From Halorubrum sp. CBA1229 (lineage in GTDB: Archaea; Halobacteriota; Halobacteria; Halobacteriales; Haloferacaceae), in contig NZ_CP054586.1 of the NCBI RefSeq assembly GCF_003721435.2, positions 1 through 64,000 of the forward strand: a stretch of 64,000 nucleotides of DNA. The letters are read 5' to 3'. The notes beneath the pieces are model-generated. The model worked only from the letters and a program-made list of their open reading frames with translations, made no database searches and was not told the origin of the DNA. How positions within the stretch are numbered: position 1 is the first letter of the stretch; each line of letters starts with the position of its first letter. A program made the position numbers and the translations under genes. Shown piece by piece: positions 16,845 to 39,644 of this stretch.

Positions 16845-17210
16845 TTAGCGCTCGGCGCCGTAGACGATTGCTGAGCGGCTTTCGTAGCCGCAGTCTCGAC
16901 ACTCGAACCACCGTTGTACCTTCGCGCCGTCAGCACTCTTCTGGCCGACGACGACGTCTTCGTTAGGACACTCTGGACAGGGTAGTTCAGGCTGAGGGCG
17001 CTTTCGGAGTTCGTCACGAAGTGATGTGGCTTCCTTCGTCGCGAATCCGCGCGACCATACGGGATAGCCGTCGACGAGAATCGCGGCCCGCCACTTATGC
17101 ACGTACGAGTCCGGCGCTCGGTGCAGGGCTGCTCGAACGTTGATCTCTGTATTTCGGTACGCCAGGATTGGAGTACGGCTCTCTCGCGTCCAATTGGTGA
17201 GTCGTGTCAT
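16845..17210 (-). CDS. DUF7568-like zinc-ribbon protein (paralogue of 23101-23466)
   Basis: Protein of 121 aa. An N-terminal module (ESRTPILAYRNTEINVRAALHRAPDSY.HKWRAAILVDGYPVWSRG in two runs) is followed by a zinc ribbon LPCPECPNEDVVVG...WFECRDCGYES. It is roughly 75% identical by eye to the protein at 23101. Its start overlaps the stop of the upstream gene (ATGA), so the two are coupled. Matches what I recall as DUF7568; role unknown. Confidence 0.8.
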   Translation of the reverse strand: MTRLTNWTRESRTPILAYRNTEINVRAALHRAPDSYVHKWRAAILVDGYPVWSRGFATKEATSLRDELRKRPQPELPCPECPNEDVVVGQKSADGAKVQRWFECRDCGYESRSAIVYGAER

Positions 17211-20097: not shown

Positions 20098-20967
20098 TCA
20101 CCGGCGTCGAACCGTCTCGCCGTCGCGCTCGAGAATCTGCTTGGTGACCAGTCGGTCAATTGCGTCATCGACGGCATTTTCCTGGTGGTCCGACAGCGCC
20201 CGCACATTCGCGAGGACGCGCTCTCGGATCGTGTCGACGTCGTCGATCCCATCGTCCACTGCTCCAAGAACGGTGTATTCGATTTCGAATTCTGTCGCAA
20301 ATTCTTCGATACGGGCGGTGAACGTGTTTGGGAGTCCCGAGAGGGAGTTCACCGCCATCTCGATTGCGAACAGCGGATGCGAGCGGTCGCGGATCTGCTG
20401 TGCTTCAGTCGCGCCGGTGTTGAACGGTCGCTGCTCGTTGATCTCGTTCAGAATCACCTCGTAGTTTACCCCTCGCTGGGCGTACGTCCGTATATCCTCG
20501 ATGTCGCGTCGCCGGCCACTTGCTAGGTCACCACCGGAAACCGCTTTGAGCAAGAACATATCCTCATCGGAGAGGACGAATGCTGTCGCGTGGGTCCCGA
20601 CCCAGAACTCCGCGGCCCGGTCGTGCATCCGGTCGGTGATCCAGACTTTTCCGACGATCTGCCGTTCGAAGAGATCGATCCGAAACCCGCGATCTTCGTG
20701 ATGTAGTTCGACGGTTTTTCCGACGCCCTCGAACGACTCCGTCGGTTCATCGACAACCGTGAATCCCTGCGACGTGAGCGTCTGGTGGACGTGCTCGAAC
20801 TCGGACACCACACCCACTGCGAGATCGATATCTTCGGTCTGGTCTTTCAATCCCCGCACTGTCATCGCAGATCCGCCGAGGAGATACACCGTCACGGACT
20901 CCGAGAGCCAACTGTCGAACTCCTCGAGGAACGCTTTGATCGCCTCGCCACCCTTGAATACAGTCAT
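20098..20967 (-). CDS. Nucleotidyltransferase-fold protein, module B (DUF6036-like)
   Basis: Protein of 289 aa. Signature VYLLGGSAMTVRGL then TEDIDLAVG gives the GGS and DxD motifs; GFRIDLFER supplies a third acidic position. The C-terminal ~90 residues look like a wHTH (RALSDHQENAVDDAIDRLVTKQILER). The gene overlaps the upstream wHTH gene by ATGA (20964-20967), so expression is coupled. Likely toxin or modifying enzyme of a two-gene module; it aligns with module C (38832) over most of its length. Confidence 0.8.
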   Translation of the reverse strand: MTVFKGGEAIKAFLEEFDSWLSESVTVYLLGGSAMTVRGLKDQTEDIDLAVGVVSEFEHVHQTLTSQGFTVVDEPTESFEGVGKTVELHHEDRGFRIDLFERQIVGKVWITDRMHDRAAEFWVGTHATAFVLSDEDMFLLKAVSGGDLASGRRRDIEDIRTYAQRGVNYEVILNEINEQRPFNTGATEAQQIRDRSHPLFAIEMAVNSLSGLPNTFTARIEEFATEFEIEYTVLGAVDDGIDDVDTIRERVLANVRALSDHQENAVDDAIDRLVTKQILERDGETVRRR

Positions 20968-21914
20968 ACGACTCCGTACTGCTCTTTGAGCGCCATAAAT
21001 TCTGATTCACTTGGAAGGACGACAGGGAGCTCGTCCGCGTCCTCAACCCCTTCCTGCAGTGCCTGGTACATCGCAGCGATCGTGGATTCCAGATCGTACC
21101 ACGCTGCAGTGTCTGTGAGCGTCTCTTGGTCGATGTCCAACTTTTCGATCAACAGCATTGCATAGCTAACGCGACGGGAGCCGCTATCGAGAACGAGCGT
21201 GTGACACACTACGTCGGCGGGCGTGAGTTCCTCGTCGGGTGCATACCAGAACGCGGGTTCGCCCGCGAGGAAGAACTGTAGCCCGTATTCCTCGAATCGA
21301 CCGAGTCCAGTAACCTGCCACTCAGGGGCGTCCAGGAGCGTGTCCGCATCCTCGGTGGTCTGCACGCGGACGAGTGCGCGTTTCGGGTCGCACCACTCGA
21401 CGGTTGCACTCGGCGCGAGCTCCCGGGCTCGTGTTCGGTGCTCGTGGGTCACGACGGCCTGCGCGAACGCCAGCAGCGGTGCGAGGTCCTCGCTCACCGC
21501 ATACTCGGGGCCGGACGGGGACAGCATCACCCGATGTTTGAGCGGCGACAGCGCCTTATGAACGCCTTGTCGAGTAATCTCGAGTCGCTCTGCAATCTCG
21601 GATACTCGGCGGGGCTCGTCGAGAAACCAGCACACCTGGAGGGTAGCAGGCGAGAGGAGGTCGGCCCATTCAACGTGGCTGAGTTCCGACTGCAACGTCC
21701 GGTATGCTTCAATGACCGGGTGGTCCGCGACACGGACTTGCCGCTGGTTGTTGGGCCCGCGGCGTTCGACCAAGAGCCCCGCGTCCAGCAAGTCATCGAG
21801 CACCTCGTAGATGTGTGCCTGTGAATACCCGGTTTCCGTTGCGAGGTCTACTGGCGTCGCCTCGCGACCGGTACTCAGCGCGTCAATCACGGCGAGTCCG
21901 GCCTTTGAAATCAT
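20964..21914 (-). CDS. Double wHTH partner, module B
   Basis: Protein of 316 aa. Two winged helices are visible: one at the N-terminus (TPVDLATETGYSQAHIYEVLDDLLDAGLLV in pieces) and one near residue 100 (RRVSEIAERLEITRQGVHKALSPLKH). The C-terminal part (EEYGLQFFLAGEPAFWYAPD and DVVCHTLVLDSGSRRVSYAM) is shared with module C's partner. ATG 21914 (MISKAG) is preferred to a GTG six codons upstream: it aligns with the start of the module C protein and places a TATA-like box at the right distance for a leaderless mRNA. Probable antitoxin and autorepressor. Confidence 0.8.
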   Translation of the reverse strand: MISKAGLAVIDALSTGREATPVDLATETGYSQAHIYEVLDDLLDAGLLVERRGPNNQRQVRVADHPVIEAYRTLQSELSHVEWADLLSPATLQVCWFLDEPRRVSEIAERLEITRQGVHKALSPLKHRVMLSPSGPEYAVSEDLAPLLAFAQAVVTHEHRTRARELAPSATVEWCDPKRALVRVQTTEDADTLLDAPEWQVTGLGRFEEYGLQFFLAGEPAFWYAPDEELTPADVVCHTLVLDSGSRRVSYAMLLIEKLDIDQETLTDTAAWYDLESTIAAMYQALQEGVEDADELPVVLPSESEFMALKEQYGVV

Positions 21915-21939
21915 CTGTGTATACCCTAACACCCACTCG

Positions 21940-22565: not shown

Positions 22566-22600
22566 GCGCCGGCACCCATCGCCGGCGCTGAAACAACACC
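22566..22600 (-). promoter_or_regulatory. GC hairpin leader element (gene at 22545)
   Basis: Toward the gene: GGTGTTGTTTCAGCGCCGGC-GATGG-GTGCCGGCGC. Stem GCGCCGGC with GCCGGCGC; 21 bp before ATG. Confidence 0.75.
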
Positions 22601-23100: not shown

Positions 23101-23466
23101 TCAGCGCTCGGCGCCGTACACGATTCTCGAGGATGCTTCGTACCCACAGCTCCGACACTCGAACCAGCGCTGAACCTTCGCGCCGTCAGCCGTTTTTCCA
23201 CCGATTGCCACGTCGCTGTTCGGACACTCGGGACACCTCAGTTCGGGCGCTGGCCGGTCACGGAGCTCGTCACGGAACGATTTCGCGTCCTTCGTCTCGT
23301 ACCCCCGTGACCACACTGGGTAGCCGTCGACGAGGATTGCGCCACGCCACTTGTAGCGGTACGAATCTGGTGCTCGGTGTAAGACCGCCCGAGCGCCGGT
23401 CTCGGTATTCCGGTATGCGAGTGTGGGCGTGCGGCTCTCGCGCTTCCAATTTGTGATTCGACCCAT
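23101..23466 (-). CDS. DUF7568-like zinc-ribbon protein, second copy
   Basis: Protein of 121 aa, a close paralogue of 16845-17210 with the same length and Cys spacing (CPECPN...CRSCGYE) and an identical C-terminal IVYGAER. Downstream of the gene at 23470 by 3 bp and probably in its transcript. Two close copies on one plasmid suggest duplication of a backbone cassette. Confidence 0.8.
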   Translation of the reverse strand: MGRITNWKRESRTPTLAYRNTETGARAVLHRAPDSYRYKWRGAILVDGYPVWSRGYETKDAKSFRDELRDRPAPELRCPECPNSDVAIGGKTADGAKVQRWFECRSCGYEASSRIVYGAER

Positions 23467-24011: not shown

Positions 24012-24046
24012 TGCGCCGGCACCCATCGCCGGCGCTCGAAAAACCC
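24012..24046 (-). promoter_or_regulatory. GC hairpin leader element (gene at 23955)
   Basis: Toward the gene: GGGTTTTTCGAGCGCCGGC-GATGG-GTGCCGGCGC. Nearly the same stem-loop as at 22566-22600. Confidence 0.75.
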
Positions 24047-24154
24047 ATCTCGAACTACGTGCGTTTCAGAATTTTCCGCACGCTCAACGGATGGACTGCT
24101 CCCAGATTGCTACCTTTGTTTTGGCTGTTAAATCCCTATGAACGGTGGTCTAAG

Positions 24155-26191
24155 TCAGAAATCCTCAATCTGATATTTCTCATTCAGCGCTGAACGATCC
24201 GATAACGCTGAATCTGTCACCGTCACAATCACCTGATACTCCGGCAATTCTTCTGGCAACGCCAATACAAAGTTTGTAATATCGGGTGCATTTCCTGTGT
24301 CCGGGATATCGAAATATGGAGAGTCAAATATGAACATCCGGATTGGCAGCGTGTTCGACTGCTCTGCCAGCTGCTTCAAGACGGCCGTATGGAACAGTAA
24401 GGCCAGAATCTTCCCCTCGTTCGAGTACTCGTTATGCCGATCGGACGGGACATCATTCCCGTCCTCGATCACGACGGTGAAATCGTAGCCCCCCTGTGGA
24501 TTGAACACAACATTCTGGGCATCGGCAAACCGACCGTGTTCGAAGTAGGAGAGAAGGTCATTCATTTCCTCCCGTAAGTTGTTCTTGAGATCAGTTCGCT
24601 CTTCCTCAATATGCCGACGAACGATCCGCTCGAAAGTTTGCAACGCTTGTCGTTTCTCCACCTTCTCACGGCGGCGTTCGTACGCCCCTTCTAAATCTTC
24701 AATACGTTCAGTAGTGTCGTCAAGTTCGTCCTCCTTGGCATTGATCTCCACTTGGACCGATGTCGCATCCCGCTCCAGCGAAGATATTTGTGTTTCCAAT
24801 TCATCCCGTCGGTCGATTAACTGGGTGACATCGCTCTCCGCGATCTGTGATTCTATCGTTTCCAGCTGTTCCTGATGATCTTGGATCCGTGACTCAAGAA
24901 GATCTAGTTCCCCCTCGAGTTTTCGTTCCCGGGATCGCAGCTCGGTCAGTTGCTCTTCCACCTCTTCGCGTTCCATGGCCGATTCACGTACGTCCCGCTC
25001 GGTGGCCGTTTCAATCCTCTTGTCTGGGACCTCCTTACGACACAGCGGACAATCTCCATCATTCAACAGCCGGCGGCGTTGCGAATCATCGACATCGTTT
25101 GTACAGATTGGGCACCGTTCCGGGATGCTCATCATCTCCTGCAGGTCCTGAGCTGTTGAATGAACCTCTTCCCCCATCTCCATCTCCTCATATCGCTCGA
25201 TACTCAGCCGGGTTTCCCGCAAATCACCGCGTGTCTCCCGTTTTTCGGACTCCAAGTTGTTTATTTGCCGTTGCAGCCGCAGCTTCTCTGACTCCAGCTG
25301 TTCCAGCTCATTATCCTGTTCTAGCGTTTCATTGATAGAGCGAAGTTCCGCTCGACGATCCGCTAATTTTGTTTCAATCTCCTTCTTGTTCTCCTGCAAT
25401 TCGGCCAGCCGTTCCGCCAATTTCTTCTCTCGGCTCTGGGCGATTTTAAGCTCTTCTGCGGCTGTTTCTTCTTCTTCGGTCAGCTCATACTTCTCAGATC
25501 GCCGTTTCTTGCTCTGGTTGATCGCAGCGGCTAGGTTAATGCCGAACAGAAGGTCAATGAAATCCTCTTTGTCCTGCCAGCGGAGGAACTTCTTGTACTC
25601 TGGCGCCATCAAGCAGAACAATGAGAAAATGTTGTACCGACCAAACTCCCGGGATTCAACCGGCCAGATACCGAACGCCTCGGAAACATCCTGCTGTGTG
25701 TTCCGGGCTTGGAAGGGGATGTCATCCTCCGACGATGGATCTGTATTCAGCTTTGGCCGATCGTCACCTGAATACCCGCGGCCGTCCCGGTTTAAAAGCC
25801 GTTGAACCAAATAGTGGTTCGTATCGACCGACCAATTCCCGGTTGTTTCTAGCGAATCCTGCTCGGACTGGATCGGATCGGTCAGTGTAATTCGTTGTTT
25901 TTCCTGACGGCCGAACAGGTTAAACCGAATTGCCTCAAGGATCGCAGTCTTTCCCTGATCATTTGGGCCGTAGAGAGCTGTATCAGTGTCATCTAGCCGG
26001 ACCACCCGGTCATCCAGATTTCGGAACTGTTGCGCTCGAATCCGCCGTATCGTTACCCTATCAACGGGAAACTCCGGTTCGTGGTAGTTCGCTTCGAGCA
26101 GCTGGCGGCACTCGTCAATCTGATCCGGCTCCATGTCCTCTGCCTCCAACGCCTCAATGATACTCACAATGATCTCCTCACGCTCAGGCAT
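24155..26191 (-). CDS. Rad50/SMC-like ATPase with zinc-hook (four-gene system, ATPase component)
   Basis: Protein of 678 aa. N-terminal half-ATPase: IRRIRAQQFRNLDDRVVRLD then ALYGPNDQGKTAILEAIRF (Walker A). Two long coiled coils flank a hinge with CPIC near residue 362 and CPLC near 384, a Rad50-like zinc hook with two CxxC pairs. The C-terminal half has MFIFDSPYFDI (Walker B, with S instead of E after D) and a VIVTVTDSAL H-loop-like end. ABC/SMC ATPases of this type serve as sensors in ABC-3C-like, Gabija/OLD-like or Wadjet-like defence. Overlaps the upstream gene by 8 bp. Base composition looks lower in GC than the neighbours, suggesting transfer. Confidence 0.82.
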   Translation of the reverse strand: MPEREEIIVSIIEALEAEDMEPDQIDECRQLLEANYHEPEFPVDRVTIRRIRAQQFRNLDDRVVRLDDTDTALYGPNDQGKTAILEAIRFNLFGRQEKQRITLTDPIQSEQDSLETTGNWSVDTNHYLVQRLLNRDGRGYSGDDRPKLNTDPSSEDDIPFQARNTQQDVSEAFGIWPVESREFGRYNIFSLFCLMAPEYKKFLRWQDKEDFIDLLFGINLAAAINQSKKRRSEKYELTEEEETAAEELKIAQSREKKLAERLAELQENKKEIETKLADRRAELRSINETLEQDNELEQLESEKLRLQRQINNLESEKRETRGDLRETRLSIERYEEMEMGEEVHSTAQDLQEMMSIPERCPICTNDVDDSQRRRLLNDGDCPLCRKEVPDKRIETATERDVRESAMEREEVEEQLTELRSRERKLEGELDLLESRIQDHQEQLETIESQIAESDVTQLIDRRDELETQISSLERDATSVQVEINAKEDELDDTTERIEDLEGAYERRREKVEKRQALQTFERIVRRHIEEERTDLKNNLREEMNDLLSYFEHGRFADAQNVVFNPQGGYDFTVVIEDGNDVPSDRHNEYSNEGKILALLFHTAVLKQLAEQSNTLPIRMFIFDSPYFDIPDTGNAPDITNFVLALPEELPEYQVIVTVTDSALSDRSALNEKYQIEDF

Positions 26192-27119
26192 GTGCGAACT
26201 CCCCCGTTAACTCGTCTAAGAACTCGATTTCGTTCGCTTTGAATTTTCTCCGCGGGCCGACGAGGAGTTCTGCTCCAGTGGAGGCCTTCTGGAGACGGTC
26301 CCCCTCACTAATATATTGAACAAAGTCATCATGCGTCATGTGGGCGATTTCGTCGATTACCGTTTGCTGGGCATAGTTCCAAGATGAGAGCATCATACTA
26401 TCGGCGTGTTCGATCCGGTCGTAGAACTCGTTCACCATGATTTCGCCCGCAGGCGCTAATTCGACACCATAGCGGCGTTCGTGTTCTCCGACCTCCCCCG
26501 TCCCCTTCTGACCGATAACAGGTTCCTCAATTAGTTGCCAGGCGAACAAGCGGTTCTTATCTTCGTAGACGTCGGACGAGAAGGGGCCGGAGCTACGTTT
26601 CGTGAAGCGGTAACGGTATCCAGTACGGTCAAGCATTCCGAGATCGCCTTCTAATTCTCCGATGGCAGCGTAGTCATCTTGTTGCGCGATCCTACGGTTC
26701 ACGAGGTAGACCAGCTTCTGTAGGCGGTACCGCGATTCAATCATTCCAGTGTCGGACCGGTCGCCGTAATCCTTCACCAGCTTCAGTAGCATTGCGAAGT
26801 CAATGAGCTCGTCAATCCGGAACCGGAGCTCGTTCCACGTTTTCACCAATTCGTCGCTGGCGACCGTCCCGTCGTGGAATGCAGCCAGTTGCTCCTCCGA
26901 GAGCCCGAAACTGCTGAGGGTTGAGATGACGCGGTCGTCCGAGAACACCTCTCGATTCAGGAACGAGTAGTACTCCTCTCCGAATTCCTCAAACTCGCTC
27001 CTAGTCGCCATGGCCTCGCCGTAGACTTCGGTGATGGTCCGGACGTATTCCTGCCGTTGCTCGGGATCCAATTCGAACCGGTCAACTGCGCGTTCGAGGA
27101 CTTTCCATTCGTTCGGCAT
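26184..27119 (-). CDS. Panacea-like domain protein (four-gene system)
   Basis: Protein of 311 aa. The central part has RYRLQKLVYLVNRRI and YRYRFTKRSSGPFSSDVYED, the pattern (K-L-Y-L ... Y-x-F ... GPFS) of Panacea/DUF4065 proteins, which act as antitoxins or chaperone-like inhibitors in toxin-antitoxin and defence systems. The N-terminus is helical and acidic; the C-terminus returns to helices. Overlaps both neighbours, consistent with fixed stoichiometry. Likely the regulator or middle component; inferred. Confidence 0.7.
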   Translation of the reverse strand: MPNEWKVLERAVDRFELDPEQRQEYVRTITEVYGEAMATRSEFEEFGEEYYSFLNREVFSDDRVISTLSSFGLSEEQLAAFHDGTVASDELVKTWNELRFRIDELIDFAMLLKLVKDYGDRSDTGMIESRYRLQKLVYLVNRRIAQQDDYAAIGELEGDLGMLDRTGYRYRFTKRSSGPFSSDVYEDKNRLFAWQLIEEPVIGQKGTGEVGEHERRYGVELAPAGEIMVNEFYDRIEHADSMMLSSWNYAQQTVIDEIAHMTHDDFVQYISEGDRLQKASTGAELLVGPRRKFKANEIEFLDELTGEFAHA

Positions 27120-27625
27120 CAGGGCACCCCCAATTCATCACAAACCTCGTTGTTCCACTCGATCACCTTTTTCGTCCCACCTGAACAGGCCGGATTCGCC
27201 GTGTTCAGGTGGCCCAGCGCGTACGCCACGAGGTATTCCTTTGATGGAGCGACGGAAACTCGCGGATAGCGAGATCCAACCGTTTCCGCCTTGTCAGATC
27301 CGTTGACGCAGAGAATAATCTCGCCTTCATTTGGGTAACTCCGCGTCTCAAGATAGTGCTTGAGATGAGGATACGGTTCGTTTTCAAGGCATTCCTGCCA
27401 ATGGATGATCCAGACGCTGTTCTGAATCAATTTGTCTCGGTCTACAAGGTTGTCTAGTGAGTGGAAGTATTCCTGGATCAGGAGCTTGTCGCCGTGGATT
27501 CCGTCCCGGATCTCCTGCACGATGTCGGTGAAGTCTTGGCCGTAGCAGCCGCCGCTCTTGGTGAGAATCAGTAGATTTTCTTCGTGCGGGACGGCATCTT
27601 GTGGCGAGTTATACCGGGTAATCAT
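27119..27625 (-). CDS. Unknown protein of four-gene system
   Basis: Protein of 168 aa that I do not recognise. Visible elements: a beta strand NLLILTKSGGCYGQ, an acidic helix FTDIVQEIRDGIHGD, WIIHWQECLEN, EIILCVNGSDKAE, and a C-terminal helix. Alternating strands and helices suggest an alpha/beta fold; a degenerate nuclease or nucleotide-binding domain is possible but no catalytic triad is obvious. Overlaps the Panacea-like gene by 1 base (TGATG) and the membrane gene by 4 (ATGA). Confidence 0.7.
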   Translation of the reverse strand: MITRYNSPQDAVPHEENLLILTKSGGCYGQDFTDIVQEIRDGIHGDKLLIQEYFHSLDNLVDRDKLIQNSVWIIHWQECLENEPYPHLKHYLETRSYPNEGEIILCVNGSDKAETVGSRYPRVSVAPSKEYLVAYALGHLNTANPACSGGTKKVIEWNNEVCDELGVP

Positions 27626-28428
27626 TTCTGTTCTCCAGCGATAATCCGGAGCCTTCGTTGGATCGATTCCAGTTTTTGATGCTCCTGCTCCAAACGTTCA
27701 TTCTTGTTCTCTCCTTGTCCTTTGATAATGGTTTCCTTCGACAGTTCACTGTGCGTCTCAAAATCGTCTCTCCATGCCTCGAAATCACGTCGTAGCTGTC
27801 TCCCGTGAACCGTCTTTGCGTTCGATAACAGTTCTGATAAATCGTTCATCCGATCAGTGAATTCATCATATGCGTCTTGCTTGGCGTGGCTACGATCGTC
27901 CTCGTTGACCCATGCGAGGGAGTCTTGCCACGCTGTGACTGTCCCAGTGATAGTCTCGCGGTCGGGTTGTTTGTCAACGACCCGTGCGTGGTACCCGACG
28001 GCGAGTAAGGCGGCGAATAGGGTAGTGAGCATTACGGAGAAGACGTAATCCAGACGGTCGATACCAGTTCTACCGGTTGTGGCGAGAATGAGGAGGAGGT
28101 AGCCAAATGTGATGACAACGCCTGATGCGGCGATGTAGCCAAGGATGGAAATGGTGAGGCGACGTACTTGTTGGAGTGGTGGGGAAAAGGTGCGTTTCCT
28201 CATTTTGGCTGTGAACATGATGAGGATGCCAAGGAAGATGACAGAAGTAGCGGCGTAGACGCCAATGAAGAAATTGGGGTTTGATATTTGGAGGAGGAGG
28301 GAGCTGGAGAACTGGAAGGTAAGAAAGACGGAGGCGAATTCAAGGAGAAGAACTTGAAGGAACAGATGGATCCCGTGACCGAATGTTATGTGATCGATGA
28401 GGCGTTGGATTGTCCGCTGAGCCTCCAT
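27622..28428 (-). CDS. Four-helix membrane protein (candidate effector of four-gene system)
   Basis: Protein of 268 aa, first gene of the operon. Four predicted membrane segments: residues ~20-42, 52-74, 91-117 and 127-147. A cytosolic C-terminal half (~150-268) is charged and probably coiled coil (DEFTDRMNDLSELLSNAK; ENKNERLEQEHQKLESIQRR). Membrane-spanning subunits with a soluble arm are typical effectors in abortive-infection systems that permeabilise the membrane; this role is inference from context. Confidence 0.72.
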   Translation of the reverse strand: MEAQRTIQRLIDHITFGHGIHLFLQVLLLEFASVFLTFQFSSSLLLQISNPNFFIGVYAATSVIFLGILIMFTAKMRKRTFSPPLQQVRRLTISILGYIAASGVVITFGYLLLILATTGRTGIDRLDYVFSVMLTTLFAALLAVGYHARVVDKQPDRETITGTVTAWQDSLAWVNEDDRSHAKQDAYDEFTDRMNDLSELLSNAKTVHGRQLRRDFEAWRDDFETHSELSKETIIKGQGENKNERLEQEHQKLESIQRRLRIIAGEQK

Positions 28429-28488
28429 ATGGATTCCATGGATGCACCTGGCATATAAAAAAGTGGACCTGCCCCAGAGTTTCCTTTC

Positions 28489-28911
28489 TCAGGCCTCCTC
28501 CACTCGTTCGACTGTGATGGTTAGATCGCCCGACGCGTAGTCGGCCTCGAAGTCGACGGTGAACGCATCCGAGTCGTACGCGGCGTGGTAGGCACGGTGC
28601 CGTTCGAGTGACTCCGTCGCCTTGAAGTGGAAGAACGCAGCTGAGGTGTAGGGCTTGCTCTGGGTCTCGACCTGCGTCTCGACAGAGGCCGGGAGCGCGA
28701 TTTGTGGTGTGTCCGTGTCGATACTCGCAGCGAACGCCTTCGCTTCCTCGACGGTCGCCTGCGAATGTGCGGGCGTCTCGCCGGTTAGCACGTTTACCGG
28801 CGTCTCGGTATCGTTGGTGAACAGGACATCGTGGAAGGTGCGTGTCCCGAGGACTGCGTCGGGGCCTAACTCGCAATCGTGGAATGGATCGTCGTCTGGA
28901 TTCTCGGGCAT
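28489..28911 (-). CDS. Hypothetical haloarchaeal protein
   Basis: Protein of 140 aa starting MPENPDDDPFHDCELGPDAV. Contains FHDVLFTNDTETPVNVLTGE and YTSAAFFHFKATESLERHRA, and a beta-rich C-terminus ending TITVERVEEA. No family recognised. A stem GAGCCC-ACAGTG-GGGCTC occurs just upstream (about 28920-28936) but without the GTTTGT box typical of the leader family. Confidence 0.65.
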   Translation of the reverse strand: MPENPDDDPFHDCELGPDAVLGTRTFHDVLFTNDTETPVNVLTGETPAHSQATVEEAKAFAASIDTDTPQIALPASVETQVETQSKPYTSAAFFHFKATESLERHRAYHAAYDSDAFTVDFEADYASGDLTITVERVEEA

Positions 28912-29033: not shown

Positions 29034-31406
29034 TCAGGCGTCGATGATTCGATCGGGCTCGATTCGTGACAACCGCATCGCGTTCCCGGTGACGCCGAGG
29101 CTCATCCCCATATCACCGACAACGACTGCCAGCGCAACGCTGACCAGGCCCAGCGGCACGCCCAGCGCGAGCAGGAGCTTCACGCCGAGGCTCGCCCAGA
29201 TGTTCTGCCGGATCACGCCGTTGGCCGTATGCGACAGGTCGTACAAGTACGGGAGCTTCTCGATGTCGTCGCCCATCAACGCAATATCGGCCGTCTCGAG
29301 GGCGGTGTCGGTGCCCGCCGCGCCCATCGCGATGCCGACCTCCGCAGTGGCGAGCGCGGGCGCGTCATTGATGCCGTCGCCGACCATCGCGACCTCCCCG
29401 TACTCCGCCTGTAACTCCTCGACAGCGTCGACCTTCTCGTCGGGCAGGAGTTCGGCGCGATACTCATCGACACCGACCTGCTCGGCGATGGCGCGGGCGG
29501 TGCCCTCGTTGTCACCGGTCAGCATCACTACGCGCTCGACGCCCAGCTCGTGCAGGCGTTCGACGGCACGCTTCGAGGCCGGGCGTACCTCGTCGGCGAT
29601 GGCGATCGCACCCAGCAGTTCCGACTCCGTCCCGACGATAACGACCGTCTTGCCCTCCCGCTCCAGTGCGGCGAGCGCGTCCTCGGCGAACGCTCCGTTG
29701 TCGGCCTCGGCCGCCTCTTCCGCCACGACGCCGCCGTCCGTCTCGCGGCGTGCTCGAGCGAGGTCGAAGCCCAGCTCCTCGAAGAGCGCGGGCTTGCCCG
29801 CATAGTACGTCTCGCCGTCGATTTCGCCCCGGATGCCCTTCCCCGTGAGGCTCTCGAAGCCAGTCGAGTCGGGCAGGTCGCCCACGCCCGCCTCCTCAGC
29901 GCGGGCGAGAATCGCCGTAGCGATGGGATGCTCACTGCGCCGCTCCAGCCCGGCGGCGCGACGGAGCAGATCGGCCTCCGTGGTGTCGCCGACCGGGACG
30001 ACATCGGTGACGGCGAGTTCGCCCTTCGTGAGCGTCCCCGTCTTGTCGAGCGCGACGGCATCGACTTCGCCCATCGCTTCGAGGTAGTTGCCGCCCTTGA
30101 TCAGGACGCCGTTCTTCGCGGCGCTGGTGATGCCCGACACCACCGAGACGGGTGTGGAGATGACGAACGCACAGGGGCAGGCGATTACCAGCAGGGTGAG
30201 CCCGCGGATGAACCAGGTCTGCCAGTCGCCGGCGAAAGTGAACCCGTACCCGGCCACGTCCACCGAGATGGGGTCGGCGATAACCAGCGGCGGGATAGCG
30301 GCGGTCAGGATTGCCAGCACGACGACGAGGGGTGTGTAGTAGCCGGAGAAGCGGTCGACGAACTGCTCAGACTCGGTCTTCTTCGCCTGTGCGCCCTGTA
30401 CCATCTCGATGATGCGCGAGAGCGTCGAATCGCCAGCGGTCGAGGTGACCTCTACCTCGAGGTACCCCTCTTCGCTGATCGCGCCGGCGTAGACCTCGTC
30501 GCCGGCAGTCTTGTCGACGGGGACGCTCTCGCCCGTGATCGGCGACTGGTCGACTGCACTCTCGCCGTCGATGACCGTTCCGTCGAGCGGAATCTTGTCG
30601 CCGGGGCGGACGACGACGGTCTCGCCAACGTCGACCTCCTCGGCGGGAACGGTCACTTCCTCACCATCGCGAAGGACGGTCGCCTCGTCGGGCGAGAGTT
30701 CCATCAGCTCGCGCAGGGAGTCCCGTGCCCTGTCCATCGCGTAGTCCTCGAGCAGCTCGGCGATGCTGAATAGGACGGCCAGCGTGGCGGCCTCGACGAA
30801 GTAGCCGATACCGGTCGCCGCGATGATCGCCGTCCCCATCAGCAGGTCGATGTCGAGGCTTCGGTTCTTCGCGGAGTAGTACCCGCTACGGACGACGGGG
30901 ATGCCGCTGGCGGCGACGGCGCCGAGGAACAGGACATCTGCGATGTGGAGCGGGTACTCGAGGACGCTCGCCACCGTGACGTTCTGTCCGGTGAGGAGGA
31001 ACTCGAAGAGGAGGCCGAGCGTGACGAACGCCGCGCCGAGCCACGTCTTCTTCGCGCGAGGACTCGTCCAGACCTCCGATGGTGGCGCGATGTCGACGCC
31101 ATCGGTCGCCTGGTTGTCCTCATCATCGCCCTCGGCGTCCGAGCCTCCGACGACCTCGTAGCCGGCGCCTTCAATCGCCTTGATTACGTCGGCTTCGCTA
31201 GTCCGATCAGGGTCGTACGTGACGTTGGCCGTGCCGGTGGTCGGCTGGAGCGTGGCGTCAGTAATGCCGTCGACACGCTGGAGGCTCTTGTCCACCTTTT
31301 GGGCGCAAGAGGGACAGTCCATCTCGGGAACGGCGAGGCGGGCGGTCAGCTCACGTCGCTGTCCGCCGCCGCTCGTTCCTCCTGCTGCGTCCGGATTCTC
31401 TGTCAT
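29034..31406 (-). CDS. P1B-type Zn/Cd/Pb/Co-exporting ATPase (ZntA/CadA-like)
   Basis: Protein of 790 aa starting MTENPDAAGG. N-terminal HMA domain with VPEMDCPSCAQKV; TGES motif in SPITGESVPVDK; membrane metal site VIACPCAFVISTPVSVV with CPC followed by S-T-P as in zinc/cadmium pumps; phosphorylation site DKTGTLTKGE; SEHPIATAIL; hinge GDGINDAPALATAEVG. Exports divalent soft metals. The regulator gene lies immediately upstream in the same direction and a perfect 16 bp palindrome sits in the 60 bp gap between them. Confidence 0.93.
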   Translation of the reverse strand: MTENPDAAGGTSGGGQRRELTARLAVPEMDCPSCAQKVDKSLQRVDGITDATLQPTTGTANVTYDPDRTSEADVIKAIEGAGYEVVGGSDAEGDDEDNQATDGVDIAPPSEVWTSPRAKKTWLGAAFVTLGLLFEFLLTGQNVTVASVLEYPLHIADVLFLGAVAASGIPVVRSGYYSAKNRSLDIDLLMGTAIIAATGIGYFVEAATLAVLFSIAELLEDYAMDRARDSLRELMELSPDEATVLRDGEEVTVPAEEVDVGETVVVRPGDKIPLDGTVIDGESAVDQSPITGESVPVDKTAGDEVYAGAISEEGYLEVEVTSTAGDSTLSRIIEMVQGAQAKKTESEQFVDRFSGYYTPLVVVLAILTAAIPPLVIADPISVDVAGYGFTFAGDWQTWFIRGLTLLVIACPCAFVISTPVSVVSGITSAAKNGVLIKGGNYLEAMGEVDAVALDKTGTLTKGELAVTDVVPVGDTTEADLLRRAAGLERRSEHPIATAILARAEEAGVGDLPDSTGFESLTGKGIRGEIDGETYYAGKPALFEELGFDLARARRETDGGVVAEEAAEADNGAFAEDALAALEREGKTVVIVGTESELLGAIAIADEVRPASKRAVERLHELGVERVVMLTGDNEGTARAIAEQVGVDEYRAELLPDEKVDAVEELQAEYGEVAMVGDGINDAPALATAEVGIAMGAAGTDTALETADIALMGDDIEKLPYLYDLSHTANGVIRQNIWASLGVKLLLALGVPLGLVSVALAVVVGDMGMSLGVTGNAMRLSRIEPDRIIDA

Positions 31407-37890: not shown

Positions 37891-37911
37891 CGGTTCGTAT
37901 CTATGCAACAG

Positions 37912-38835
37912 ATGCTTACCGAAGGCGAGGTTCGCGCGCTTACCGTCCTTCACGGTGAGCAGACAGTCTCCGAATTTGCGACCCAGCTGGACCGCAGTCT
38001 CAGCTACACGTCTGAACTTGTCGATCGTCTCGAAGCGACCGGACTCGTCGAGACGCGTCGACAAGGGAAAACAAAGCAGATCCGGCCATCGGACGCGAAA
38101 GCACTCGAACTCCTCGCAGACATCACCCAAGAGTATTCGCACATCGACTGGCCTGAACTGTTGTCGGGTGCGACGCTCCGCGTTCTCTACTATCTTGAAA
38201 CACCGCGGGTCGTAATGGAGCTCGCGCGCCGGGCCAACATTCACAGAAGTACCGTCTATCGCGCCCTCGATCCACTTCAGCATCGAGGGATCATCTACGA
38301 AACTGACGAGGATGCATATGTGCTGAACGAGGGATTCGAACAACTGAGTACGCTTGCTCGGGAACTCGTTCATCACGACCATCGCCAGACCGTCGAACAA
38401 CACACCGACACCTACACGATTCTCTGGGAGTCACTCGACGAGTTCCTCGTCCAGACCGCAGATGAGATTACCGCCGAGGACTTCCTTTCGACGGGGCCAG
38501 AGCGTTTCCAGACCTACGACCTGCCCCTTCTGGCCCGCGACCGTCGGTACTATTTCCATTCAGAGACGATGAATGATCTCTCGCCGGCGATGCTGTGCTG
38601 TCATATGCTCGTAATCGATTCGGGCGCACGTACCCAGTCATACTGTCTGCTCCTGCTCAGCCACGTTGACGTCGACCGTGACGAACTGCGTGACCAGGCC
38701 ACAAAGTACGGCGTCGACGATCTCGTCGAGGACTTGCTCACGTATCTCGACACGAGTGGCGAGGAGCGGGCATCTCGACTTCCCGAGTGGGAAGAGTTCC
38801 AAGAATTGGCTGCGGACTACGGGGTGTCAGCATGA
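37912..38835 (+). CDS. Double wHTH partner, module C
   Basis: Protein of 307 aa starting MLTEGEVRALTVLHGEQTVS; an ATG three codons earlier is possible. Two winged helices: TVSEFATQLDRSLSYTSELV and VVMELARRANIHRSTVYRAL. The C-terminal region (YDLPLLARDRRYYFHSETM; AMLCCHMLVIDSGARTQSYC) is homologous to the module B protein at 20964. The upstream TATA box supports the start. Its stop overlaps the next start (ATGA). Probable antitoxin/autorepressor. Confidence 0.82.
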   Translation: MLTEGEVRALTVLHGEQTVSEFATQLDRSLSYTSELVDRLEATGLVETRRQGKTKQIRPSDAKALELLADITQEYSHIDWPELLSGATLRVLYYLETPRVVMELARRANIHRSTVYRALDPLQHRGIIYETDEDAYVLNEGFEQLSTLARELVHHDHRQTVEQHTDTYTILWESLDEFLVQTADEITAEDFLSTGPERFQTYDLPLLARDRRYYFHSETMNDLSPAMLCCHMLVIDSGARTQSYCLLLLSHVDVDRDELRDQATKYGVDDLVEDLLTYLDTSGEERASRLPEWEEFQELAADYGVSA

Positions 38836-39644
38836 GGGCGCGATTCGACAGTTCGTACATTCGGTCGGAACTCGAGCGCATCGGCGAGCAGCTAGACGAC
38901 CCACTCACTGTCTTCTTGATCGGCGGTGGGGCAATGGCGTTCCAGGATCTCAAGACCACTACCAAGGATATCGATCTCATCGTCGCATCCGGTGATGACC
39001 TCGGGCAGCTCCAAGCAGTACTGCTCGAACTTGGTTACGATATCGTTCGGGAACCGGACGAAGAATACGAAGCGCTCGGTGCTCAGCGAATCCTCGAGAA
39101 CGATGATGGGTGTCGAATCGACATCTTTCACCAGCAGGTAATCGATAAACTGGTTCTTTCTGACGGGATTCGGAAGCGTAGCGAGCGGTACCTCAACCCC
39201 AGCAACTTGGTGGTCGAACTCGTGAGCCCAGAGGACATCTTCCTATTCAAGGCGGTCGCCGGACGGGTGGACGATATCGAAGATATGTTTTCGCTGCTGC
39301 AGACTGACCTCGATTTCGACGTCGTCGAAGCAGAACTCGCCGCGCAGATCGACCTCTTGGATCAAGAGCTATTCGTAACATACGTGAACGAGGCGTTGGC
39401 CGATCTCACCGAGCAACACAACGTGAGGACACCCCTGCATGAGCCGGTCGCGGAGATTACAGAGCGCGTATACGAGGAACTCGAAGTGCTTCACGCCCTC
39501 GACGAACCGAAATCTATGCCTGCCCTCCAGCAGGAACTCGATTACACCACGGTTGAATTACAGGATATCGTGAGTCGTCTCGAGGAGAAAGACGCAGTCA
39601 AGGAAACCGCTGATCGCATCGAGCGTCTTTCGACGACGATCTGA
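38832..39644 (+). CDS. Nucleotidyltransferase-fold protein, module C (DUF6036-like)
   Basis: Protein of 270 aa starting MRARFDSSYIRSELERIGEQ. Signature VFLIGGGAMAFQDL then TKDIDLIVA (GG and DxD motifs), with CRIDIFHQ as third acidic strand. The C-terminal segment (MPALQQELDYTTVELQDIVS) looks like a helix-turn-helix. Homologous to module B at 20098. Translation coupled to the wHTH gene. Probable toxin or modifying enzyme. Confidence 0.82.
   Translation: MRARFDSSYIRSELERIGEQLDDPLTVFLIGGGAMAFQDLKTTTKDIDLIVASGDDLGQLQAVLLELGYDIVREPDEEYEALGAQRILENDDGCRIDIFHQQVIDKLVLSDGIRKRSERYLNPSNLVVELVSPEDIFLFKAVAGRVDDIEDMFSLLQTDLDFDVVEAELAAQIDLLDQELFVTYVNEALADLTEQHNVRTPLHEPVAEITERVYEELEVLHALDEPKSMPALQQELDYTTVELQDIVSRLEEKDAVKETADRIERLSTTI

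What the first reader, a model, noticed from the sequence alone, without database searches (positions are those of the whole stretch)
24155..28428. Four-gene operon: membrane protein, unknown protein, Panacea-like protein, Rad50-like ATPase with double CxxC hook
All four genes overlap by 1 to 8 bases, so they form one functional unit. The combination of an SMC/Rad50-type sensor ATPase, a Panacea-like regulator, a 168-residue unknown and a four-helix membrane protein with a coiled cytosolic arm recalls ABC-3C type conflict systems, but I cannot match this exact set. The ATPase has two CxxC pairs in the hook and DSP rather than DEP after the Walker B strand. Lower apparent GC than its surroundings and position within plasmid accessory genes suggest recent transfer. 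Possible model: the ATPase senses invading DNA, the Panacea-like protein restrains, and the membrane protein disrupts the membrane.
Basis: inference. Interest (0 to 1): 0.8.

Follow-up and report, generated by a model that had tools for sequence, protein, structure and literature searches.

The report
Haloarchaeal four-gene ATPase–membrane conflict cassette
Four overlapping genes that salt-loving archaea carry and swap as one small block appear to encode an ATP-binding DNA sensor wired to a membrane protein, probably an unrecognised self-sacrificing defence against viruses or rival plasmids.

Summary
Four minus-strand genes (28428–24155; overlaps 4, 1, 8 bp) encode a 4-TM protein, a 168-aa protein, a 311-aa Panacea-like protein and a 678-aa Rad50-type ATPase. 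All four occur together, in this order, in 23 of 23 other distinct loci with a full-length 311-aa or complete ATPase gene that I examined. Exceptions: one plasmid with the ATPase alone (N-terminus missing) and one with an ATPase fragment. The cassette sits cleanly in a plasmid backbone; 4 of 6 related plasmids fetched show the empty site. The ATPase family has two CPxC pairs 17 residues apart (20/20) and no catalytic glutamate after Walker B (Ser, once Ala). It forms its own clade, apart from the archaeal LmuB compared, and no partner resembles their middle component. So it resembles ABC-3C/Lamassu in design but failed the membership tests run (archaeal MC3-type references only). Best reading: an ATP-gated sensor whose Panacea-like partner restrains a membrane effector (abortive defence). 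No activity has been shown. I rate it a new variant of SMC/Rad50-ATPase-gated conflict systems.

The parts
27622..28428 (-). Gene 1: 268-aa membrane protein, four TM helices (residues about 20-38, 53-71, 99-117, 126-144) and a ~110-residue C-terminal arm, probably helical and cytosolic (inferred from sequence); proposed effector
   Evidence: four hydrophobic segments in 20 of 20 family members; lowest mean pairwise identity of the four, 0.22
27119..27625 (-). Gene 2: 168-aa protein, predicted receiver/Rossmann-like beta-alpha fold; proposed adaptor
   Evidence: AF2 pLDDT 81.4; top structural match Z 10.1 (4dn6), several ties; H14, S70, P98, P145, W157 invariant in 19 of 19
26184..27119 (-). 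Gene 3: 311-aa protein with an N-terminal helical part and a Panacea-like winged-helix part; proposed restraint/transducer
   Evidence: AF2 pLDDT 78.6; best structural match 7yk3 chain D of a DarTG toxin-antitoxin complex, Z 11.3, rmsd 3.7, 141 aligned, model 104-281
26433..26756 (-). Panacea-like segment of gene 3 (residues about 122-229)
   Evidence: profile hits to short proteins over model positions ~122-229, which reach PF13274
24155..26191 (-). Gene 4: 678-aa Rad50-type ABC ATPase with short coiled coil; proposed sensor
25946..25969 (-). Walker A of the ATPase (GPNDQGKT)
25040..25114 (-). Hook with two CPxC pairs, 17 residues between them
   Evidence: 20 of 20 family members
24317..24337 (-). 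Walker B strand MFIFDSP: Ser in place of the catalytic Glu
28453..28462 (-). TATA-like stretch about 23 bp upstream of the first start codon; role as promoter inferred
   Evidence: window sequence; upstream sequences of 15 loci printed, some but not all with a similar stretch
24046..28485 (.). Inserted cassette: plasmid backbone homology stops at 24045 and resumes at 28486-28508
   Evidence: against plasmids lacking the operon at this site

Best explanation
A mobile, four-gene, ATPase-gated conflict system of haloarchaea. The ATPase (short-coil Rad50 type, no catalytic glutamate after Walker B) binds ATP and some aberrant or invading DNA and clamps rather than cycles. The Panacea-like 311-aa protein, whose gene overlaps the ATPase gene by a mostly conserved 8 bp, binds the ATPase and holds the membrane protein inactive, directly or through the 168-aa receiver-like adaptor. 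On DNA sensing the restraint is released and the four-helix membrane protein disrupts the cell membrane, killing or stalling the infected cell. Shown: gene set, order, co-inheritance, mobility, motifs; folds by prediction only. Inferred: every step of sensing, restraint and membrane damage.
For: Unit: all four genes in the same order in 15 of 15 other genomes with a full-length 311-aa gene (391 Halobacteria searched), 6 of 6 plasmid records found with the 311-aa protein (one is the plasmid of a genome already counted) and 11 of 11 confirmed loci of an ATPase pattern scan of 84,980 species genomes (8 of the 11 are contigs already counted, by length). Distances of the four proteins correlate at r 0.945-0.968 over 19 loci (0 of 2000 permutations as high for each pair). 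Overlap of genes 3 and 4 is 8 bp in 18 of 21 loci (start codons chosen by me). The ATPase is of a class used in defence (LmuB and PbeC models hit). Panacea-like link and DarTG-complex structural match; one Panacea antitoxin is reported to neutralise directly a toxin with a predicted TM region (PMC10440598, passages read). TrlF-family ATPase genes, related to anti-phage Ppl, stand near two divergent copies.
Against: No activity data. The LmuB model that hits the window ATPase (115 bits) hits 241 of 242 haloarchaeal genomes and 13 of 14 controls at E 1e-10, scores proteins of 800-1000 aa up to about 110 bits and a Pbe-type ATPase at 123, so that hit says little. No enzymatic effector; pore formation is guessed from TM count. 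'Panacea-like' and the DarTG match are remote, and winged-helix folds give many matches. The role of the 168-aa protein is unknown. Of 9 neighbour proteins given to PADLOC, hand-picked from 4 of the 6 loci whose genes I listed, 2 hit anti-phage Ppl strongly, 1 is a general SNF2-type helicase, 6 had no hit.
Confidence: 0.55

Rival explanations
1. Plasmid addiction or plasmid-competition module: a toxin-antitoxin-like set whose membrane toxin is released when the plasmid is lost or a rival replicon enters, serving the plasmid, not the host.
For: The window lies on a 363,938-bp second contig with a backbone shared by many plasmids; antitoxin-type Panacea-like domain. The six annotated records are plasmids because that collection holds only plasmids.
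Against: Four copies lie on contigs of 1.5-4.0 Mb (G175, G319, G353, G022); the operon is missing at this site in 6 of 6 related plasmids fetched; an SMC-type ATPase is more than a TA pair needs.
Confidence: 0.2
2. A true member of the Lamassu/ABC-3C superfamily whose effector, middle component and ATPase have diverged beyond what I compared.
For: Same design: effector-like gene first, middle gene(s), ~650-680 aa hook ATPase last, lost catalytic Glu; PADLOC LmuB hit 1.4e-33.
Against: Five archaeal LmuB score 353-462 bits with that model, the window 115; LmuB and this family are separate clades, each 100/100 (with a long-branch warning); hhalign match partial, 275 columns against 573 with PbeC; no MC similarity (probability 1.1% or less); DSP not DQP, double not single CxxC. 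The references are all MC3-type; other ABC-3C subtypes were compared only through the Pfam and PADLOC models.
Confidence: 0.1
3. A membrane-tethered DNA maintenance complex (partition, repair or transfer of plasmid DNA) with a winged-helix subunit, not a killing system.
For: The winged-helix part of the 311-aa protein also matches a chain of the MukBEF head module (7nyw_D, Z 7.2) and weakly a Wadjet-II JetABC chain (9qe1_J, E 1.4); SMC-like ATPase; membrane anchor.
Against: Patchy (16 of 391 genomes); inserted cassette absent at this site from 6 of 6 related plasmids fetched; no catalytic Glu for a motor cycle.
Confidence: 0.15

Closest known systems
Lamassu / ABC-3C / DdmABC
   Same: Effector-type gene first, hook ATPase of ~650-680 aa last in the operon; missing catalytic Glu; presumed abortive
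   Different: ATPase outside the archaeal LmuB clade compared, double CPxC, DSP instead of DQP; no LmuC/MC3 similarity; membrane protein in place of an LmuA enzyme; four genes
PbeABCD (CxC ABC ATPase-DndE systems)
   Same: Best hhalign partner of the ATPase among the sets compared (E 3.8e-33 over 573 columns); these ATPases also lack the Glu (DT in 8 of 8)
   Different: No PbeA helicase-nuclease or DndE-like gene in the unit; hook a single CxC (5 of 8 rows) or CxxC (3 of 8), this family two CPxC; separate 100/100 clade
Rad50 (Mre11-Rad50)
   Same: Walker A region and head similarity (hhalign 611 columns, E 1.1e-26); zinc-hook idea
   Different: About 680 against ~900 aa, no Mre11 in the operon, DSP instead of DEP, two CPxC
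PanA/PanT (Panacea) and DarTG toxin-antitoxin systems
   Same: Panacea-like winged-helix part; precedent for neutralising a toxin with a predicted TM region
   Different: Two-gene systems without an SMC-type ATPase (own knowledge); similarity remote

Membership tests
Lamassu/ABC-3C | ATPase belongs to the LmuB clade | tested here: not met
   115 bits with the best of all PADLOC LmuB models, vs 353-462 for five archaeal LmuB with it; separate clades, each 100/100 (long branches). Only five archaeal LmuB compared directly; no bacterial LmuB
Lamassu/ABC-3C | Glu-to-Gln after Walker B, as generally reported for LmuB (PMC10586767, section read) | tested here: not met
   DQ in 5 of 5 archaeal LmuB; DS (once DA) in the window family; the Glu is lost in both
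Lamassu/ABC-3C | LmuC (middle component) | tested here: not met
   hhalign of genes 1-3 against four archaeal middle components, confirmed as MC3, probability 1.1% or less; no Pfam MC hit at E 1 for the window proteins. The review notes that some systems lack LmuC
Lamassu/ABC-3C | LmuA: N-terminal effector plus C-terminal docking domain | tested here: inconclusive
   no CTD match for genes 1-3, but Pfam also missed the CTD in 2 of 4 archaeal LmuA scanned, so absence is weak
PbeABCD / CxC-DndE | PbeA helicase-nuclease in the operon | tested here: not met
   no such gene in the four-gene unit; flanks not scanned for it. Two PbeA of comparison loci confirmed by PADLOC
PbeABCD / CxC-DndE | CxC hook in the ATPase | tested here: not met
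   two CPxC, gap 17, in 20 of 20
Mre11-Rad50 | catalytic Asp-Glu after Walker B and an Mre11 partner | tested here: not met
   DS; no nuclease gene in the operon
Panacea antitoxins (PF13274) | Panacea domain | tested here: inconclusive
   no direct hit; linked through intermediates
Panacea antitoxins (PF13274) | neutralises a toxin encoded alongside | not testable with these tools
   needs co-expression assays
Wadjet (JetABCD) | kleisin, KITE, MukB-like SMC and Toprim JetD | not tested
   considered only; a weak winged-helix match to one JetABC chain is not a test

The most novel reading that the evidence does not exclude
A distinct archaeal immune system in which a Rad50-derived, non-cycling ATPase with a doubled CPxC hook senses foreign or broken DNA and, through a Panacea-type winged-helix protein and a receiver-like adaptor, opens a four-helix membrane effector: DNA sensing coupled to membrane killing, outside Lamassu, Wadjet and Pbe.
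Probability: 0.42. Interest if true: 0.82.

Novelty: new variant of a known kind. Interest (0 to 1): 0.68.

Why it matters
If true, loss of the catalytic glutamate after Walker B unites LmuB (DQ, 5 of 5), PbeC/DndD-type (DT, 11 of 11) and this family (DS/DA, 20 of 20), while four of five Rad50-size haloarchaeal proteins compared keep it (DEP; the fifth gave no match): a testable rule that defence-type SMC-like ATPases are ATP-locked switches, not motors. It would add a membrane effector to that class in archaea, where few abortive systems are worked out (own knowledge), and would show what Panacea-like domains do outside two-gene toxin-antitoxin pairs. The cassette is 4.4 kb, with empty sister plasmids as natural controls.

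Tried and rejected
Filing under Lamassu on the PADLOC LmuB hit: rejected after one search showed the model hits 241 of 242 genomes, and searches gave true archaeal Lamassu for comparison. Filing under Pbe: rejected, operon content differs. Searches for Lamassu references: Cap4 nuclease in 5 of 246 genomes of the phylum; MComp1 in 0 of 97 Halobacteria and in no control, so it shows nothing. Viral contigs: 21 stretches matched a pattern, none a relative. Solved structures by sequence: 311-aa profile, two weak unrelated hits up to E 10; one Panacea-like short protein, one chance hit; ATPase profile, 42 sequences (Rad50, RecF, PtuA, GajA, Smc and a few chance coiled coils), none named LmuB. Foldseek: no match at E 0.001 or better for either model; the VIA second looks list no chain named LmuC, which excludes nothing. 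Selection between near-identical copies: nonsynonymous/synonymous differences for TM 7/3 and 5/2, 168-aa 0/6 and 1/4, 311-aa 2/3 and 3/6, ATPase 8/9 and 4/20; too few to claim anything special for the TM protein. tRNA at the insertion site: none in the window. Chance ORFs or pseudogenes: rejected, open and conserved in the loci read.

Not-in-print statements rest on searches of the held library only; the 2020 ABC ATPase classification paper behind 'ABC-3C' (recalled) is not held, so I could not check whether it lists this set.
Full report
What is there. Four minus-strand ORFs overlap by 4, 1 and 8 bp: 268 aa (27622–28428), 168 aa (27119–27625), 311 aa (26184–27119) and 678 aa (24155–26191). 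A TATA-like stretch lies about 23 bp before the first start codon, as expected for a leaderless haloarchaeal transcript (consensus recalled; sequence). GC is 0.51–0.55 across the operon, lower than the kilobases beside it, though a few other parts of the window are as low. The window is the start of a 363,938-bp contig in a two-contig genome. A genome of the same genus, G027, has a contig of the same length as the Halorubrum trapanicum plasmid pCBA1232-01 and the same four proteins, so the host is probably a Halorubrum (inference).

Conservation. The 311-aa protein found 17 of 391 Halobacteria genomes, 16 at full length including the window's own; its profile found 33 of 391, again 16 at full length, the other 17 matching only part, mostly the Panacea-like segment. 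I fetched the 15 other full-length loci and the one partial locus. All four genes stand in the same order in 15 of 15; the partial locus L034 has only a short Panacea-like protein. The plasmid collection holds six records with the 311-aa protein, all six with the four genes; in L036 the membrane gene was too diverged for phmmer and was taken by position, and it too has four hydrophobic segments. A scan of 84,980 species genomes with one ATPase pattern gave 33 stretches, 11 confirmed loci, all 11 with the four genes; eight are contigs already seen, by length. That makes 24 distinct loci including the window. All named ones are haloarchaeal, the unnamed ones were searched within the class. Two plasmid records found with the ATPase (8 records) depart: Haloterrigena alkaliphila has the ATPase without about the first 44 residues and without the other genes, and Haladaptatus pallidirubidus only its last ~124 residues. 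The pattern scans are narrow, so absence outside haloarchaea is not shown.

One inherited unit that moves. Distances of the four proteins correlate at 0.945–0.968 over 19 loci. The overlap of genes 3 and 4 is 8 bp in 18 of 21 loci (14, 14 and 11 in the rest; start codons chosen by me). Copies at 97–98% DNA identity lie in another genome of the genus (97% over a 6.3-kb piece) and on a Halospeciosus flavus plasmid (98% over 5.0 kb); these two share flanking backbone as well and may have spread with it. Window 22000–30000 matches 103 plasmid records, none over 80% of its length in one place. In six that I fetched, homology to the left backbone ends at 24035–24045; in four it resumes at 28486–28508 with 15–38 bases in between, an empty site; in the other two, which carry an aconitase gene there, it resumes at 29047. 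Relative to those plasmids the insert is the four genes and little else.

The ATPase. Pfam gives AAA_23 (1.6e-7, over its cut-off); all NCBIfam hits (ASRP, Rad50 and others) are under their cut-offs; PADLOC's best are LmuB and PbeC. The LmuB hit (115 bits) is not diagnostic: the same model hits 241 of 242 haloarchaeal genomes and 13 of 14 controls at 1e-10, scores proteins of 800–1000 aa up to about 110 bits and a Pbe-type ATPase at 123. With a strict cut-off 5 of 294 genomes of the phylum yield genuine LmuB (353–462 bits). Four of these five stand in the order LmuA–LmuC–LmuB; in the fifth the first ~140 residues of the LmuB frame look like LmuC by eye. Pfam calls all four separate LmuC proteins MC3, and PADLOC or Pfam confirms three LmuA. 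Against these LmuB, the window family aligns only partly (275 columns, E 1.4e-10), but over 573 columns with PbeC-type ATPases (3.8e-33) and 611 with a set of Rad50-size proteins (1.1e-26) (two of the eight PbeC rows were checked with PADLOC, the rest are labelled by neighbourhood). In a maximum-likelihood tree of 38 rows the family is one clade (100/100) and LmuB another (100/100); the program warns of long branches, and the PbeC rows are not one clade. Motifs: Walker A in 20 of 20; two CPxC exactly 17 residues apart in 20 of 20; after the Walker B Asp always Ser, except Ala in L020 (row L038 fell outside the search pattern but reads IDSP in the alignment). PbeC/DndD rows have DT, LmuB DQ, four of five Rad50-size rows DE.

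The partners. The 311-aa model (pLDDT 78.6) has a winged-helix part; its best second-look match is chain D of the M. tuberculosis DarTG complex, Z 11.3 over 141 residues, clear of the next at 8.3. By its length I take this chain to be the DarG C-terminal domain, the DarT-inhibiting part (chain identity recalled; the paper's title seen in a reference list). Its segment ~122–229 is linked to PF13274 through short proteins. The 168-aa model (81.4) is receiver/Rossmann-like with several tied matches. The membrane protein has four helices in 20 of 20 and only sub-cut-off Pfam hits.

Mechanism. From the class of the ATPase, the missing glutamate, an antitoxin-type domain and a membrane protein, I infer an ATP-locked sensor that, on binding aberrant DNA, releases a membrane effector. 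One paper reports a Panacea domain that directly neutralises a toxin with a predicted TM region, with interface mutants losing neutralisation; in other pairs there, Panacea itself is not the neutralising part (PMC10440598, passages). The Lamassu review describes the parallel logic of sensor ATPase plus varied effectors and abortive outcome (PMC10586767, passages and one section). Two divergent copies stand near TrlF-family ATPase genes (505.7 and 550.4 bits, cut-off 350), relatives of anti-phage Ppl, and five loci hold recombinase-like genes within 10 kb (L020, L023, L027, L031, L037, the L031 one under cut-off). The other neighbours given to PADLOC mostly had no hit. These are leads, not proof.

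Verdict. Real, conserved, mobile, and not described in the libraries and papers searched; similar in design to ABC-3C/Lamassu but not a member by the tests run. Function unproven.

Noticed in passing
window 22566-22589 and 24013-24036: An exact 24-base element with 8-base inverted-repeat arms (GCGCCGGCACCCATCGCCGGCGCT) occurs twice near the starts of backbone genes (0 expected in shuffles); the second copy lies just before the left edge of the inserted operon.
   Followed up: partly
window 20098-21932 and 37903-39644: Two similar-looking two-gene sets (HTH-like regulator plus nucleotidyltransferase-like protein; the second nucleotidyltransferase matches DUF6036 at 2.8e-6, the first has no hit), possible toxin-antitoxin pairs.
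   Followed up: partly
window 16845-17210 and 23101-23466: 121-aa proteins alike by eye (the second is DUF7568, with DUF7567 beside it) in what look like repeated backbone blocks.
   Followed up: no
L136 5896-7959 (Haloterrigena alkaliphila plasmid): Orphan ATPase of this family without about the first 44 residues and without the three partner genes; perhaps a decaying copy.
   Followed up: partly
L022 4551-7115 and L027 3275-6085: TrlF-family ATPase genes near two divergent copies of the operon, a hint of small defence islands.
   Followed up: partly
L067, L070, L074 and other partial matches: 150-151-aa Panacea/PadR-like proteins encoded next to a second regulator-like gene in the three loci read; a haloarchaeal pair of unknown role.
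   Followed up: no
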